Source: a bacterium
GTDB taxonomy: Bacteria > ARS69
Length of the DNA: 37,927 nt
Assembly: GCA_025774805.1 (NCBI GenBank)
Contig: JALGZR010000021.1
Coordinates: 1-37,927 of the forward strand
Reading direction: 5' to 3'
The notes beneath the pieces are model-generated. The model made no database searches and was not told the DNA's origin. It worked only from the letters and a program-made list of their open reading frames with translations. Both the position numbers and the translations under genes were made by a program. The first letter of the stretch is position 1; the number at the start of each line of letters is the position of its first letter. This document shows, one piece after another, positions 2,679-37,927 of the stretch.

Positions 2679-4541
2679 ATGAGTGAACTCGACCGATTCC
2701 TGCACGAACTGAACGAGACGTATCTGGCCAAGCACCACGCGAAGGAGTCCGCCTTCTGGGAAACCCGCATGGGTCTGGCCGACCGCCACGACGAGCTCGC
2801 CCGCGCCGAGCTCGAGTTGCGGGACTTCCTGGCCGACGGGGAGCGGCTGAAGGAGCTGCGGGCCTGGAAGGCGAAGGGCGTCGCCACCCCCGCCCAGGGC
2901 TTCGTGCTCGAGGGTTGGATTCGCACCCTCTCGCGAAACCAGGTGGAGGATGCCGAGGCGAAGGAGCTCCTCACCGAGCTCGTCGCGTGCGAGACGGACC
3001 TCCAGCGCGCCCGCGGGAGCATGCCGCTCGGTTACGTCGAGCCGGGAGGGAAGTTCATTCCCGCCAGCTCGGTGGAGCTCGGGAACCAACTCCGAACCCA
3101 TCCTGATGCCGGGGTGCGGGAGGCCAGCTTCGCCGGCTTGCGCTCGATCGAGGACTTCGTCCTCGAGCACGGCTATCCCGACGTCGTGAGGCTGCGGAAC
3201 CGCTTCGCCCGGCGTCTCGGCCACTCGGATTACTACGAGTACAAGGTTCGCTGGGCGGAGGGGTTCGACAAGAACACCCTTTTCGGATACCTCGACGATC
3301 TCGAGGCTCGAACTCGTGATCATGCCGGGGAGGAGATCGAGTCCCTCCGCAAGCGCGAAGGCCGACAGGCCCTCGACCCGTGGAACTTCGGCTACCTGAC
3401 CCAGGGCGGGGCCGTCCGGGAGGAACAGGATCCGTACTTCCGCTTCGAGGACGCGCTCGAGCGCTGGGTGCGGAGCTTCGCGGCCCTCGGGATCCGCTTC
3501 CGAGACGCCCGCATCACGCTCGACCTGATCGATCGGAAGGGAAAGTACGAGAACGGGTTCATGCACGGACCGGTGCCGGCTTTCGTCCGCCGGGGAACCT
3601 GGCTCCCGGCCGAGATCAACTTCACCGCGAACGCCCTGCCCGACCGCACGGGCGCCGGCCACCGCGCCGCCCAGACCCTGTTCCACGAAGGGGGACACGC
3701 GGCCCACTTCTCGAACATCGTCACCGAGGCGCCCTGTTTCTCCCAGGAGTTCGCACCGACGTCGGTCGCCTTCGCCGAGACGCAATCGATGTTCTGCGAC
3801 AGCTTCCTCGAGGACGCCGACTGGCAGATGCGTTACGCGCGGGACGCGGACGGCCGCCCCATCCCGTTCGAGATCATCGAGAAGGAGATCCGTTCGGTCC
3901 ATCCGTTCGCCGCCCAGCAGGTTCGGAACATGCTCGTGGTCTGCTACGCGGAGAAGGCGCTGTACGAGATCCCGGACGACGAGCTCACTCCCGAGCGCAT
4001 TCTCTCGACCATCCGGGAGGAGGAGTCGCGGATCATGCTCCTCGAGGGCGGGAGCTCGCGACCCGTTCTCTCCGTTCCCCATCTGCTGTCCTGGGAGTCC
4101 TCCGCCTACTACCACGGGTACGTCCTGGCGCAGATGGCGGTCCACCAGACGCGCGCCCACTTCCGCAAGTGCTACGGACACCTCGTCGACAACCCGTCCG
4201 TCGGGCGGGATCTGTCGGAGACTTACTGGAAGCCGGGGAACTCGCGCGGGTTTCTGGAGCTGGTCGAGGAGATGACGGGGAAGCCCTTCTCCGCCGATGC
4301 GCTCGTCGACGAGGTGTCGATCCCGACGGACGCCGCGGTCGATCGCGCGCGCCGCATGGTGGAACGGCTTCCGGACATCCCCGAGCCGACCGGCGAGGTC
4401 GAGCTCGACCTCCGCCTCCGCGTGATCCACGGACCCGAGACCGTGGTGGAGGCGGGTAAGAGTCCTCTCGAGGTCGCCGAGACGTTCCGGGCGTGGATCC
4501 TCGAGAACTGGCCGCGGGCCGCGGCCGGGGCCGGCGCCTGA
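2679..4541 (+). CDS. M3-family zinc oligopeptidase (oligoendopeptidase F-like)
   Basis: 620 residues, the normal size for M3 thimet oligopeptidase/PepF-type enzymes, which cleave short peptides inside a closed helical channel. The zinc-binding HExxH motif is present as FHEGGHAAH (His336, Glu337, His340). The third ligand region follows in TSVAFAETQSMFCDSF. The conserved PNYxxG-like helix region near the C-terminus is represented by YYHGYVLAQMAVHQ. No signal peptide is seen, so it is cytosolic. The ATG at 2679 has only a weak upstream GACGCGAG and no clear Shine-Dalgarno. It probably completes degradation of peptides together with the M29 aminopeptidase upstream. Confidence 0.9.
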   Translation: MSELDRFLHELNETYLAKHHAKESAFWETRMGLADRHDELARAELELRDFLADGERLKELRAWKAKGVATPAQGFVLEGWIRTLSRNQVEDAEAKELLTELVACETDLQRARGSMPLGYVEPGGKFIPASSVELGNQLRTHPDAGVREASFAGLRSIEDFVLEHGYPDVVRLRNRFARRLGHSDYYEYKVRWAEGFDKNTLFGYLDDLEARTRDHAGEEIESLRKREGRQALDPWNFGYLTQGGAVREEQDPYFRFEDALERWVRSFAALGIRFRDARITLDLIDRKGKYENGFMHGPVPAFVRRGTWLPAEINFTANALPDRTGAGHRAAQTLFHEGGHAAHFSNIVTEAPCFSQEFAPTSVAFAETQSMFCDSFLEDADWQMRYARDADGRPIPFEIIEKEIRSVHPFAAQQVRNMLVVCYAEKALYEIPDDELTPERILSTIREEESRIMLLEGGSSRPVLSVPHLLSWESSAYYHGYVLAQMAVHQTRAHFRKCYGHLVDNPSVGRDLSETYWKPGNSRGFLELVEEMTGKPFSADALVDEVSIPTDAAVDRARRMVERLPDIPEPTGEVELDLRLRVIHGPETVVEAGKSPLEVAETFRAWILENWPRAAAGAGA

Positions 4542-33743: not shown

Positions 33744-34883
33744 ATGAGTTTCCTCGAAAAGCTCCGATCCGAGCTCGTCGACATCGTCGAGTGGGTGGAC
33801 GACAGCCACCGGACCCTGGTGTGGCGGTTCCCGCGCTACCACAATCAGATCAAGAACGGCGCGAAGCTCATCGTGCGGCCGGGGCAGGAGGCGATCTTCG
33901 TACATCAGGGAAAGATCGCCGACCAGTTCGGACCCGGAACCTACGTCCTGCAGAGCCGGAACCTCCCGGTGCTGAGCACTCTCGCCGGTTGGCCCCACGG
34001 GTTCGACAGTCCGTTCAAGGCGGAGGTCTACTTCGTCGCCACGCGCCAGGTCACCGACCTGAAGTGGGGAACACCGAACCCGGTCATGATGCGGGATCCG
34101 GACTTCGGTCCGATCCGCGTCCGCGCGTTCGGCACGTACACGATCAAGGCGGTCGACGCGCGCGCTCTTCTGACCGAGCTCGTCGGCACCGACTCCAGCT
34201 TCGAGTCGGACGAGATCTCCGAGCTCCTGCGATCGATCGTGAACTCGGAGTTCGCGGACCTCGTCGCGAACGCGTCGGTTCCCGTCCTCGACCTCGCGTC
34301 CAACTACCAGGAGCTCTCCGGACAGCTCCGGGAGGCGGTGCGGCGCCGCGTCCGGGAGGTGTTCGGGCTCGACGTCCCGCAGCTCTACATCGTGAACGTC
34401 TCCCTTCCGGCGGAGGTCGAGCAGGCGCTCGACGCGCGCACCAGCATGAACCTCGTCGGTGACCTCGCGGCGTACCAGCAGTACCAGATCGGGCAGTCCA
34501 TGCCGGTCGCCGCCGCGAATCCGTCCGGCGGCCTCGCCGGCGCCGGCGTCGGTGTCGGAATGGGCATGGCAATGGCCCGCCAGATGGTGCCGGGAACGGA
34601 TGGACAGATGGGGGGAGGTGTGCCCTCTGCCGCCGTTCCGCCGATCGGGCCAGCGCCCGCGCCTCCGGCTGTCACGTGGCACATCGTGGAGCAGGGCGCC
34701 ACGGTGGGTCCGTTCGCATACGGCCAGGTTTCCGAGGCGATCACCGCCGGACGGATCCGACCCGAGACGCTCGTCTGGACGGCGGGCATGAGTGGCTGGG
34801 TCGCCGCCGCTCAGGTGCCGCAGCTGGGGCAGCTGTTCGCCGGGGCGGTGCCGCCGGCACCGCCTCCGCCGTCCGCGGGGTGA
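33744..34883 (+). CDS. SPFH-domain protein with C-terminal GYF_2 domain (YdjI-like)
   Basis: 379 residues. The N-terminal part matches YdjI/virion-core-protein-like SPFH proteins: IVEWVDDSHRTLVWRFPRYH, NQIKNGAKLIVRPGQEAIFV, DQFGPGTYVLQSRNLPVLST, and GPIRVRAFGTYTIKAVDARAL. A helical stretch (QLREAVRRRVREVFGLDVPQ) ends in a Gly/Met-rich hydrophobic segment (GGLAGAGVGVGMGMAMARQM). A GYF_2 domain follows at about 311-365: WHIVEQGATVGPFAYGQVSE, IRPETLVWTAGMSGWVAAAQ. Such proteins assemble on the inner face of the membrane and gather partners. The tail is Pro-rich. It probably works with the zinc-ribbon protein upstream. The stop lies 26 bases before the tRNA-like fragment. Confidence 0.88.
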   Translation: MSFLEKLRSELVDIVEWVDDSHRTLVWRFPRYHNQIKNGAKLIVRPGQEAIFVHQGKIADQFGPGTYVLQSRNLPVLSTLAGWPHGFDSPFKAEVYFVATRQVTDLKWGTPNPVMMRDPDFGPIRVRAFGTYTIKAVDARALLTELVGTDSSFESDEISELLRSIVNSEFADLVANASVPVLDLASNYQELSGQLREAVRRRVREVFGLDVPQLYIVNVSLPAEVEQALDARTSMNLVGDLAAYQQYQIGQSMPVAAANPSGGLAGAGVGVGMGMAMARQMVPGTDGQMGGGVPSAAVPPIGPAPAPPAVTWHIVEQGATVGPFAYGQVSEAITAGRIRPETLVWTAGMSGWVAAAQVPQLGQLFAGAVPPAPPPPSAG

Positions 34884-34909
34884 GGGGGTGGGGAGGAGGC
34901 TGACCCGCC

Positions 34910-34948
34910 GCGGGTTCGATTCCCGCCGCCTCCACCACTAACTTTTTT
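34910..34948 (+). other. 3' end of a tmRNA/tRNA-like gene: T arm, acceptor strand, CCA, T-run (probable att remnant)
   Basis: T stem GCGGG (34910-34914), loop TTCGATT, and CCCGC (34922-34926). Then come the acceptor strand CGCCTCC, discriminator A, CCA (34935-34937), and a T-run at 34943-34948. A U at the position opposite nucleotide 3 of the acceptor fits the Ala-type acceptor of tmRNA. Upstream there is no D arm, anticodon arm or room for a tmRNA body; only GGAGGC (34895-34900) could pair with GCCTCC. Integrative elements commonly leave exactly this part of ssrA or a tRNA gene at their edge. Confidence 0.6.
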
Positions 34949-35224
34949 AAATCAAAGGCTTACGGCTTCCAGAAAAGCTGTCTCCGGATATCCTCCGTGA
35001 AAATGTGTGACACCTAGTAAAGCCGGCCCCGATGCGGCGGCGCTGCGCCTCCGGATCTGTGCGGGGGGCGCCGGGCGACCGGCGTCCCTACCGCGAAGTG
35101 AAAATGTGTGGCTGAAGGTTAACGCGCCCGAGACTCGCCACTTAGCAGTCGGATGCGATAGAGCTGCACGTCTGGCCCTGTGCGGGGGGGCCTGGCGACG
35201 GGCGTTCTCACCGCGACGTGAGGC

Positions 35225-35271: not shown

Positions 35272-35320
35272 TCAAGAAGTAGTGCCAGGTTGACGGCTAA
35301 CTCCTCTGACACCCCCCCTC

Positions 35321-35351
35321 CCCCGTCCCCCCGGTCCCGGGCGAGCGGGAG
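35321..35351 (+). repeat. Dispersed C-rich repeat, copy 1
   Basis: CCCCGT then CCCCCCGGTCCCGGGCGAG then CGGGAG. Other copies are at 36195-36221, 37261-37285 and 37448-37478. The core CCCCCCGGTCCCGGGCGAG is identical in all four. Confidence 0.75.
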
Positions 35352-35700
35352 GGGTGCGGGGTCGATGAAAGCTCCCGGTAGGCCCGCCCGGCCGCCCGAT
35401 CACCGTCGAGCAGAGGGCGGAACAGGATCAAGGGTGAGTTTCGAAGACTCGCCACCCGCGACCTCACCCGTGACGGCTGTGTGAGCACACTTAGTTCCAG
35501 CCGTGGGGAAGTTCGTGAGTAAAGGGCCGGTTACTTCTAAAGAATGATCTCTTGTCGGAAAGGGGTCAGCAAACGCTCTTGAACGGATCTAGGGCACGTC
35601 TCTGGACTGAGGAGGGGAAGCGGTACATACTGAATCCTGGTGACGGCGCGTGAATCGCACCGGGACACCGGGCAAGTTCCAAATGAGATTGGAGAAGGCA

Positions 35701-36027
35701 TTGAGCGTTTATCTCATCGCAGACGTCCAGGTTACTGATGACAAGTGGATACCGGAGTACGCCGCGAACGTTCACGATATTGTCCACAAGCACGGAGGCA
35801 AGTACCTCACGCGTAGCGCCAACATCACACACGTTGAAGGGGACGAGCGTGACTCGACACTGATTGCGATTCTGGAGTTTCCATCTATGGACAACGTCAG
35901 GGCTTTTGCAGACGATCCGGCCTACGCGGATTACGGGAAGGCACGGCGTTCCGGAAGCATCAGCAGCCTCCGCGTGATCGACGCCACCGATGCTGCAGGG
36001 ACGATTCCGTACTTGCCAAAGGGCTAG
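35701..36027 (+). CDS. DUF1330-type dimeric alpha-beta-barrel protein
   Basis: 108 residues from TTG 35701, chosen because GGAG lies six bases upstream and the protein then begins like the family (SVYLIADVQVTDDKWIPEYA). The pattern continues with NVHDIVHKHGGKYLTRSANI, a beta strand LIAILEFPSMDNVRAFADDP, and AYADYGKARRSGSISSLRVI, matching DUF1330 proteins, small cytosolic dimers of ferredoxin-like fold with unknown function. Codon use is noticeably less GC-rich than in the core genes (for example GTTTATCTC, GATGACAAG), consistent with transfer. An upstream GTG at 35650 in frame has no ribosome site. Proteins of this size and type are frequent cargo of integron cassettes. Confidence 0.75.
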   Translation: MSVYLIADVQVTDDKWIPEYAANVHDIVHKHGGKYLTRSANITHVEGDERDSTLIAILEFPSMDNVRAFADDPAYADYGKARRSGSISSLRVIDATDAAGTIPYLPKG

Positions 36028-36194
36028 CGCCAGACAATTCCGTGTGTTCTTAGATTGTTTCGAAGGAACCGCGGCCATTTGAATTGGGACCTTTGACGAG
36101 GCTCGGTTCCTACGCCACTTGCACATGATGGTCGGCCGGCGAGGGCGAGAGTGGTCACTGAGCGGTGTCTTCCCCTTTCGCCTTGCGATCTCTC

Positions 36195-36221
36195 CCCCGT
36201 CCCCCCGGTCCCGGGCGAGCG
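36195..36221 (+). repeat. Dispersed C-rich repeat, copy 2
   Basis: It directly abuts the stop codon of the minus-strand cassette-type gene (36223-36225), where the attC of that gene would be expected. Confidence 0.7.
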
Positions 36222-36222
36222 A

Positions 36223-36558
36223 CTAAACTTCCTGAATCACATTGCGTCCGCCGCCGGGCCGAGATGCCCACTCAAAGTGTTCAACGATCTGCACTTTTGA
36301 GTCCTCGCTGATACGCAACTCGCACTTTGACTTGCCACCGTTCAGCACGCCGCCGGCTTCTAGTTGGCAGTAGCGGAATTCAAACGAACTGCCGTCAACG
36401 ACCCCTACCAGAAACCCGCGTTCGATTCTGCCGCCGGAATATTCTGCATGAACGCTGCGTCCCTCTTGTCGAAACTCAAATATTGTGCGCTCGTCGATAA
36501 CACCATTCTCATCCGTTTCGACGGCATTCATTCTAAGATTGTGCAGGTTGAACTCCAT
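36223..36558 (-). CDS. Small protein of the family often labelled N-acetylglutamate synthase (true function unknown)
   Basis: 111 residues from ATG 36558, with GAGGTGAGG upstream. The central pattern is AEYSGGRIERGFLVGVVDG, then FEFRYCQLEAGGVLNGGKSK, ending in strands KVQIVEHFEWASRPGG and VIQEV. It matches a widespread small beta-rich family that databases often call n-acetylglutamate synthase without enzymatic support; no acetyltransferase motif is visible. No signal peptide. Codon use is AT-richer than in the core genome. About 28 bases separate the start from the R' end of an attC-like site, the normal position of a cassette gene behind the preceding attC. Its own 3' attC is not seen. Confidence 0.7.
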   Translation of the reverse strand: MEFNLHNLRMNAVETDENGVIDERTIFEFRQEGRSVHAEYSGGRIERGFLVGVVDGSSFEFRYCQLEAGGVLNGGKSKCELRISEDSKVQIVEHFEWASRPGGGRNVIQEV

Positions 36559-36585
36559 GTGATCGTTTCCTCACCTCGGTAATCC

Positions 36586-36726
36586 GTATAACGCCTTGCG
36601 TTTCAGCTGCGAGCGCTGCTCTCGGGGAGTACCGCGAAGGTACCGAGCCAAGCGAGGCACTCCCGGCCGGCCTCGATACGTCCAATATGCGCCGCGGCGC
36701 TCGTCAGATGCAAACGCTAGTTGGGC
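36586..36726 (-). other. Integron attC-like recombination site
   Basis: Read on the minus strand: R'' GCCCAAC (36726-36720), spacer TA, then an imperfect inverted repeat, then spacer AAGGC and R' GTTATAC (36592-36586). The inner arms GCGTTT-G-CATCTG-A-CGAGCGC and GCGCTCGCAGCTGAAACGC pair over about 20 bp with single unpaired G and A bases on one strand only, like the extrahelical bases of real attC sites. Total length is 141 bp, at the upper end of the usual range. R'' fits the RYYYAAC consensus exactly; R' deviates from GTTRRRY at one base. Confidence 0.6.
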
Positions 36727-36950
36727 GCCGCATGTGGAGCGGCGACATTCACCCACCGAAGCCCACCGGGGCCGGCAGCACGGCAGGTGCGCGTCCATCG
36801 CGACATGGCGCGAGTCCAGAAGAGATGGACTGCCGACCTCAGTCCGGCACTACCGGCCTTGGTGAGAGCCAGCTTCCGAGCACTTCGCCCCTCGATCACT
36901 GGCGCGCGACCGCCAGCATGCCCTGCTGCCGGCCGCACCAACCCGGAAGA

Positions 36951-37091
36951 GGTCAGGGAGAGCTGGAGCGCGGTCGTTACGCGCCGGTGTGGGATGGCCG
37001 AGATGAGGCCGGCCGTCCGGTATCTCCCGGGGTCTACTTCGTGAGGCTCGAAGCCGGGGACTTCTCCTCCACGCAGCACAACCTCCTTTGA
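36951..37091 (+). pseudogene. Remnant of a FlgD-Ig-type C-terminal domain
   Basis: The frame reads GQGELERGRYAPVWDGRDEA then GRPVSPGVYFVRLEAGDFSS before TQHNLL and a TGA. The G-x-Y-x-x-x-W-D-G-R-D-x-x-G-R-x-V-x-x-G-V-Y-F-x-R-L pattern is the last part of the FlgD Ig-like domain, which ends many secreted proteins in FCB-group bacteria. Upstream codons in the same frame have no protein-like character and no start, so only the 3' end of a gene survives here. The usual basic end (such as KMVLLR) is altered. Confidence 0.65.
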
Positions 37092-37260
37092 CGCGCGGGT
37101 CAATGCCAATGCGGCCAGAAGCCGAGGGGATCCAACCGGTTCGCGTTTAGCGGGTGCCTGGAGGGCACAATGCCGGTTACCCCGTGACATGGCTTCCGGG
37201 CAGATCCACTTGATGCGAGGCTGGCAAACTGGCGGAGCCAATCGACCCGGGTCGCGGTGG

Positions 37261-37285
37261 CCCCCCGGTCCCGGGCGAGCGGGAG
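37261..37285 (+). repeat. Dispersed C-rich repeat, copy 3
   Basis: Lies within the second ~190-bp unit and is followed by TAATGCAACCG, as in copy 4. Confidence 0.7.
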
Positions 37286-37447
37286 TAATGCAACCGTGCG
37301 CATACGACGAGCGGATCCAGCCGGTCCGGAGGCCACGAGTCGTGTCAGTTTGCCTTACCGCCCTGACCCCGCGACCTAGGCGCCGGCCAGATCCGCCGCG
37401 ACGGGAAGGTAACAGATCAGGCGTCCCAATCCAGCCGATCCGCCCCT

Positions 37448-37478
37448 CCCCGTCCCCCCGGTCCCGGGCGAGCGGGAG
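37448..37478 (+). repeat. Dispersed C-rich repeat, copy 4
   Basis: Lies within the third ~190-bp unit; same 31-base form as copy 1. Confidence 0.7.
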
Positions 37479-37761
37479 TAATGCAACCGCGCACATACGG
37501 CGAGCGGATCCAGCCGGACCAATTGCCACGGGACAATCAAGGTGTGGACCATGCTGCTCCCGTGGCCTGGACACCGGCCAGATCCGCCAAGGGCGAAGCT
37601 GGCAAACTGGCGGACCCAATCCAACCGACTCGCCAGGCCGCCGTAACTGCTCTCCTGCCAGTCTCTTCCGCCACCCGTGATCTGACCCTCACCAACCGGC
37701 TATACTGATACCAGCCCCGGCCGGATCCCCGACGCCGACCGCCAGACTACGGGCGGATGTC

Positions 37762-37927
37762 ATGAAGCGGCTGATGTGGTTCTGCCTACTTCCGTTCCTC
37801 CTTTCTGAACCCACGCCCGCCACGACGATCAACGTCCCAGAGGACATCCCCACGATCTGGCAGGCCGTGGATCTCGCGCAGTCGGGCGACAGCGTTCTCG
37901 TCGGACCTGGCGTCTGGACCGATCGGG
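37762..37927 (+). CDS. Exported right-handed parallel beta-helix protein, 5' part only
   Basis: The gene runs off the right edge after 55 codons. The ATG at 37762 begins a signal peptide (MKRLMWFCLLPFLLSEPTPA), followed by TTINVPEDIPTIWQAVDLAQ and SGDSVLVGPGVWTDR. The phrase V-P-x-D-x-P-T-I-x-x-A-[VI]-x-x-A-x-x-G-D-x-V-x-V-x-P-G marks the first rung of secreted parallel beta-helix proteins, which in FCB-group bacteria often end in a FlgD-Ig or type IX-like sorting domain. Function is unknown; many bind or act on surface glycans. A possible -10 TATACT lies at about 37699 with no good -35. The ribosome site is weak (GGCGGATGTC). Confidence 0.75.
   Translation, partial: MKRLMWFCLLPFLLSEPTPATTINVPEDIPTIWQAVDLAQSGDSVLVGPGVWTDR

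What the first reader, a model, noticed from the sequence alone, without database searches (positions are those of the whole stretch)
36223..36726. Orphan integron-type cassette with attC-like site
On the minus strand, a 141-bp site with R'' GCCCAAC, R' GTTATAC and a ~20-bp imperfect stem with one-sided unpaired bases precedes a small cargo-type gene by about 28 bases. This is the normal attC-to-next-cassette arrangement. There is no integron integrase in the window, so it may be a stray cassette or part of a clusters-without-integrase element. Integrons in this phylum are little described as far as I know.
Basis: partly seen in the sequence, partly recalled or inferred. Interest (0 to 1): 0.7.

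Follow-up and report, generated by a model that had tools for sequence, protein, structure and literature searches.

The report
Genuine attC site, decayed chromosomal integron
The stretch holds a real integron recombination site followed by a small captured gene; it is a leftover piece of a chromosomal gene-capture system that this bacterial lineage carries, which is a known kind of system in a lineage where I found no description of it.

Summary
Window 36586-36726 (minus strand) is a genuine attC: R'' GCCCAAC, R' GTTATAC, an L''/L' stem with the usual one-sided extra base, 141 bp, 27 nt before a real 111-aa gene. A covariance model built from 36 attC sites of other phyla finds it (38.4 bits); one built only from a relative's sites finds it at 63 bits. 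It is the only site in the contig. The genome does carry an integron integrase, on contig C266, but with a TAG before the catalytic Tyr and changes at conserved residues, so probably dead. Two attC follow it, and a decayed array starts contig C120. A relative in the same family (G002) has an intact integrase and at least 30 attC, most of them near-identical 139-142 bp sites, the window site's own type. So this is not a random stray: it is a one-attC remnant (or contig-split edge) of the lineage's sedentary chromosomal integron, with cassettes on the same strand as intI. Neither neighbouring cassette is complete here, so it does not meet the two-attC CALIN definition. New member of a known kind.

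The parts
36586..36726 (-). attC site, 141 bp: R'' GCCCAAC (36726-36720) ... R' GTTATAC (36592-36586), lineage-type imperfect stem with extrahelical A
   Evidence: Models R1 38.4 bits and R2 63 bits; alignment to G002 attC sites 101-103 identical of 126-134 aligned for the closest
36720..36726 (-). R'' box GCCCAAC; predicts that the upstream cassette starts with GTTGGGC (not found up to the contig end)
   Evidence: sequence; boundary search
36586..36592 (-). R' box GTTATAC, recombination point G^TTATAC; start of the P0001 cassette; predicts distal R'' GTATAAC (not found in the window)
   Evidence: sequence; boundary search
36223..36558 (-). cassette-type gene P0001, 111 aa, no Pfam or NCBIfam family; low GC3 (0.58 against 0.88 in the SPFH gene at 33744-34883); relatives on haloarchaeal and Acinetobacter plasmids; absent from the other four genomes of the family
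36187..36225 (+). local repeat copy (core CCCCGGTCCCGGGCGAGCG) abutting the stop codon of P0001, where the rest of the cassette and its attC would be expected
   Evidence: role is inference
36930..37091 (+). fragment resembling the C-terminal end of a secreted FlgD-type-domain protein (VWDGRDEAGRPVSPGVYFVRLEAGDFSSTQHNLL*), antisense to the cassette; chromosomal debris on the upstream side of the attC
   Evidence: translation; BLAST matches in the own genome; domain name from memory

Best explanation
It is a genuine attC of this lineage's own sedentary chromosomal integron, left as a one-site remnant with its downstream cassette gene P0001. Mechanism (established for integrons in general; [quoted passage not shown] Shown: the site, its structure and lineage type, the integrase gene and further attC sites elsewhere in the genome, and a working-looking version of the system in a relative. 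Inferred: that P0001 entered as a cassette, that its own attC was later lost (a repeat now abuts its stop codon), and that the region no longer recombines, because the only integron integrase found in the genome has a TAG before the catalytic tyrosine.
For: Two independent models match. Similarity to G002 sites goes far beyond the stem: 103 of 131 aligned bases identical to the best, best attC of another phylum scoring 16.6 against 53.9. Own-genome intI at C266:32698-33639, 415.8 bits, followed on the same strand by attC at C266:34646-34780 and 35432-35527 (45.6 and 50.1 bits); weaker attC at C120:1038-1097, 1756-1848 and 3405-3468. In G002, R' of each attC predicts R'' of the next exactly in 18 of 22 cassettes, plus the one testable cassette of C266 (19 of 23; shuffles mean 3.2, maximum 9). 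G000 and G002 IntI are sisters (support 99/84), fitting vertical inheritance. P0001 has foreign composition and is absent from the relatives. In G000 the intI has TAG plus G-to-E and L-to-P at conserved motifs that are intact in G001 and G002.
Against: There is only one attC in a 38-kb contig. P0001 has no distal attC and the upstream DNA is not a recognisable cassette. P0001 relatives were not found in 50 other intI-bearing genomes, so nothing outside shows it as a cassette gene. The contig ends 1.2 kb beyond the attC, so an intact array beyond the end is not excluded. The TAG could be an assembly error.
Confidence: 0.72

Rival explanations
1. The attC is the edge of an intact integron array that the assembly cut at the end of contig C114; P0001 is the last gene of the array.
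For: The attC lies 1.2 kb from the contig end; C266 and C120 also carry their attC at contig ends. Repeated attC sequences break assemblies, and fragmented assemblies split integrons (noted for draft genomes in PMC9024848).
Against: The 1.2 kb beyond the attC is not cassette-like: no boundary GTTGGGC, no coding pattern on the cassette strand, an antisense secreted-protein fragment, and repeats shared with another chromosomal place on C63.
Confidence: 0.14
2. A lone cassette was inserted by IntI at a non-attI genomic site (attG-type insertion): the attC ends a cassette lying at higher coordinates and P0001 is a resident gene.
For: Single attC away from an array; such insertions were demonstrated by Loot et al. 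2024 (doi 10.1038/s41564-023-01548-y, known here only through citations in PMC11023631 and PMC12444791).
Against: P0001, not the upstream DNA, looks acquired (low GC3, absent from relatives) and starts at the cassette-typical distance; no upstream cassette gene or GTTGGGC boundary found.
Confidence: 0.1
3. A chance imperfect palindrome with GTT/AAC ends, not an attC.
For: Pairing alone is not rare in GC-rich DNA: shuffled sequence reached a score of 17 or more 8 times in 1.5 Mb; the whole-site fold is not significant.
Against: 63-bit match to a model from another genus, identity across the whole 141 bp, a further attC of similar type beside intI in the same genome.
Confidence: 0.02

Closest known systems
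Sedentary chromosomal integrons with homogeneous attC (e.g. the Vibrio cholerae superintegron with VCR repeats; comparison from general knowledge)
   Same: Chromosomal intI, long same-orientation arrays of small accessory genes, and one near-identical attC type per lineage (G002: 17 sites on one 13.6-kb contig)
   Different: In this lineage intI reads in the same direction as the cassettes, with the attI-like junction downstream of intI; in G000 intI is interrupted and the array broken up
Integrons with intI on the same strand as the cassettes (archaeal integrons of PMC9668308 with attI downstream of intI; Treponema from memory)
   Same: Layout intI - attI-like junction - cassettes, all on one strand, in G000 C266 and G002 C352; also in most of the intI loci with attC hits fetched here
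   Different: Another lineage, with its own 139-142-bp attC type
CALIN / single-attC elements (IntegronFinder 2.0, PMC9024848)
   Same: attC and cassette gene without a nearby integrase
   Different: Only one attC, below the two-site threshold; that paper says single-site CALIN can be true positives
attG insertions (Loot et al. 2024)
   Same: A single attC outside an array in a genome that carries an integron
   Different: No bounded cassette or empty site could be shown

Membership tests
attC site | R'' RYYYAAC and R' GTTRRRY boxes | tested here: met
   GCCCAAC fits RYYYAAC; GTTATAC keeps the core GTTR and the final Y, deviating at one R position (GTT-A-T-A-C), as several of the catalogued sites in A1 do
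attC site | Inner stem L''/L' with extrahelical base(s) on one side | tested here: met
   CATCTG-A-CGAGCGC pairs with GCGCTCG-CAGCTG, one mismatch; model R1 alignment shows it
attC site | Match to a covariance model of known attC | tested here: met
   R1 38.4 bits, E 4.5e-8; R2 63 bits. IntegronFinder's own attC model was not available
attC site | Recombined by an integron integrase | not testable with these tools
   needs a recombination assay
Integron gene cassette (attC-bounded gene) | Gene follows R' closely and ends in its own attC whose R'' complements the starting R' | tested here: not met
   Start 27 nt after R' fits, but the distal R'' GTATAAC and any second attC are absent; P0001 is at best a cassette that lost its 3' end
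CALIN (cluster of attC lacking integrase) | At least two attC less than 4 kb apart | tested here: not met
   One site in the whole contig
Complete integron in this genome | intI gene with adjacent attC | tested here: met
   C266: TIGR02249 415.8 bits over the 265-bit cut-off; two attC on the same strand downstream
Complete integron in this genome | Functional integrase with intact catalytic residues | tested here: not met
   In-frame TAG before the catalytic Tyr of the frame; sequencing error not excluded
Sedentary chromosomal integron in the family (G002) | Intact intI, long array, homogeneous attC, cassettes in one orientation | tested here: met
   429.3-bit intI; at least 30 attC over several contigs, 17 on C23; mean column identity 85%; end rule 18 of 22. 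Link of C23 to intI not assembled

The most novel reading that the evidence does not exclude
In a small phylum with few genomes, a VCR-like sedentary integron with same-strand intI has died in one genus (G000) while staying intact in another (G002), and the window's lone attC-plus-gene is a cassette that IntI placed or left outside the array before it died, so that the lineage can be used to watch a chromosomal integron decay and scatter its cassettes.
Probability: 0.25. Interest if true: 0.5.

Novelty: new member of a known kind. Interest (0 to 1): 0.33.

Why it matters
It adds a lineage represented by only five held genomes to those with a chromosomal integron, gives its attC type, and offers a pair of related genomes, one with an intact and one with an interrupted integrase, in which loss of an integron and the fate of its cassettes can be compared. 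It does not change how integrons are thought to work.

Tried and rejected
Rfam on the window: nothing. RF00290 was an unrelated RNA family picked by mistake. P0001 in Pfam, NCBIfam, PDB sequences, viral contigs and 50 intI-bearing genomes: no relatives; only distant plasmid relatives. A long minus-strand ORF ending in the attC (36717-37619) was considered as the upstream cassette gene and rejected: no family and no codon-position GC pattern. Boundary motifs of neighbouring cassettes in the window: absent. The local repeat as part of the integron: not found on the attC-bearing contigs examined. The phylum could not be named: the one genome-contig scan went to IntI, and near relatives are withheld there. 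A recollection that P0001 resembles small proteins annotated 'n-acetylglutamate synthase' was not tested.

Full report
What is there. The window is the whole of contig C114 (37,927 bases) of a 5.1-Mb, 284-contig genome. On the minus strand, 36726 to 36586 reads GCCCAACTAGCGTTTGCATCTGACGAGCGCC...GCGCTCGCAGCTGAAACGCAAGGCGTTATAC. The outer boxes are R'' GCCCAAC and R' GTTATAC. The inner arms pair as CATCTG-A-CGAGCGC with GCGCTCG-CAGCTG and GCGTTT with AAACGC, leaving an unpaired A and G on the left arm. P0001 starts 27 nt after R' behind a good ribosome-binding site.

Is it more than chance? Pairing alone is only suggestive: shuffled DNA gives arm scores of 17 or more 8 times in 1.5 Mb, against 17.8-19.1 here, and the whole-site fold is unremarkable. 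I therefore used profile evidence. Thirty-six attC near integrases of other phyla (fetched, picked by arm pairing and the extrahelical base) align cleanly, and the model made from them (R1) hits the window site at 38.4 bits, E 4.5e-8. The training sites were chosen for pairing, so the pair counts are biased, but none came from this genome or its relatives. R1 with filters off did not report the 141-bp site, most likely because of its long loop. A second model (R2) from 18 full-length sites of relative G002 hits it at 63 bits with default filters and with filters off.

The rest of the genome. The integron integrase family TIGR02249 matches C266:32698-33639 at 415.8 bits. The protein has the IntI-type HHLHETVVQRAV segment, but an in-frame TAG replaces the Tyr of DGYDIRT, ahead of the catalytic tyrosine (TTMVY), and two conserved motifs are changed (YGAELRL where G001 has YGSGLRL, QELPGH where both relatives have QELLGH); the relatives' genes are open throughout. 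Two attC lie downstream on the same strand. The R' of the first (GTTGTGC) predicts the R'' of the second (GCACAAC) exactly. The first cassette's R'' GTCTAAC predicts a start GTTAGAC; GTCAGAC is found between intI and the first gene, a one-base-changed, attI-like junction. C120 begins with further, partly decayed attC among small genes (a methyltransferase, then a HEAT-like protein and others).

The relatives. The phylum holds only five genomes here, all of one family. G002 and G001 have intact integrases (429.3 and 423.2 bits). G002 carries at least 30 attC on several contigs, 17 of them on the 13.6-kb C23, mostly 139-142 bp and with 85% mean column identity. Across 23 cassettes (22 of G002 and one of C266) the end rule holds exactly 19 times against 3.2 in shuffles, and 21 of 23 ORFs start 2-36 nt after R'. 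The window site aligns with these over its whole length (e.g. 103 of 131 aligned bases identical), much better than with any attC of another phylum. G000 and G002 IntI are sister branches, near Gemmatimonadota sequences. intI and cassettes read in the same direction in G000 C266 and G002 C352.

What it is. A genuine attC of the lineage's own sedentary integron type. What remains open is why it stands alone. The upstream side (36727-37927) shows no cassette start, no coding signal on the cassette strand, an antisense fragment of a secreted protein, and repeats shared with C63: chromosomal debris. The downstream side holds P0001, a gene of foreign composition absent from the other four genomes, but no distal attC; instead a local repeat abuts its stop codon. 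The simplest reading is a broken cassette array reduced to one attC and one gene, in a genome whose integrase is itself interrupted. A split array at the contig end or a lone insertion at a secondary site are the live alternatives.

Limits. The integrase stop and the contig ends come from a draft, metagenome-style assembly with 5% estimated contamination. C266 and C120 are assigned to this genome by binning only, though C266's attC type supports it. Whether the site recombines cannot be tested here. The statement that integrons are undescribed in this phylum cannot be checked, because the phylum could not be named.

Noticed in passing
window 35313-35351, 36187-36225, 37247-37285, 37440-37478: A GC-rich repeat (core CCCCGGTCCCGGGCGAGCG) occurs four times, same strand, in the last 2.7 kb of the contig; in the rest of the 5.1-Mb genome only one one-mismatch copy (C17:4917). 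Copies flank the DUF1330 gene and abut P0001's stop.
   Followed up: partly
window 37238-37530 and C63:108-425: A roughly 193-bp partly duplicated intergenic unit, followed by the start of a secreted protein; 37559-37876 has an 80% identical copy near the end of C63.
   Followed up: partly
window 34907-35013: About 100-bp dispersed repeat with 72-89% copies on C259 (two) and C261 and shorter matches on C190 (next to a tyrosine recombinase) and C244.
   Followed up: no
window 35650-36027: DUF1330 protein with low GC3 (0.68), between two repeat copies, opposite in direction to the cassette; possibly also acquired. No attC next to it.
   Followed up: partly
G000:C266:32698-33639 (L001 1438-2454): Integron integrase interrupted by one TAG, frame open beyond it; further changes at conserved motifs.
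   Followed up: yes
G002:C352 (L135), between intI and the first gene: attI-like junction GGATA-GTTGGGC downstream of intI, matching the first cassette's R'' GCCCAAC, with a promoter-like TTGCGA-17-TATACT ahead that could drive the cassettes.
   Followed up: partly
window 34841-34937: ARAGORN reports a tRNA of unknown type with a four-base anticodon; probably spurious (no Rfam match).
   Followed up: no
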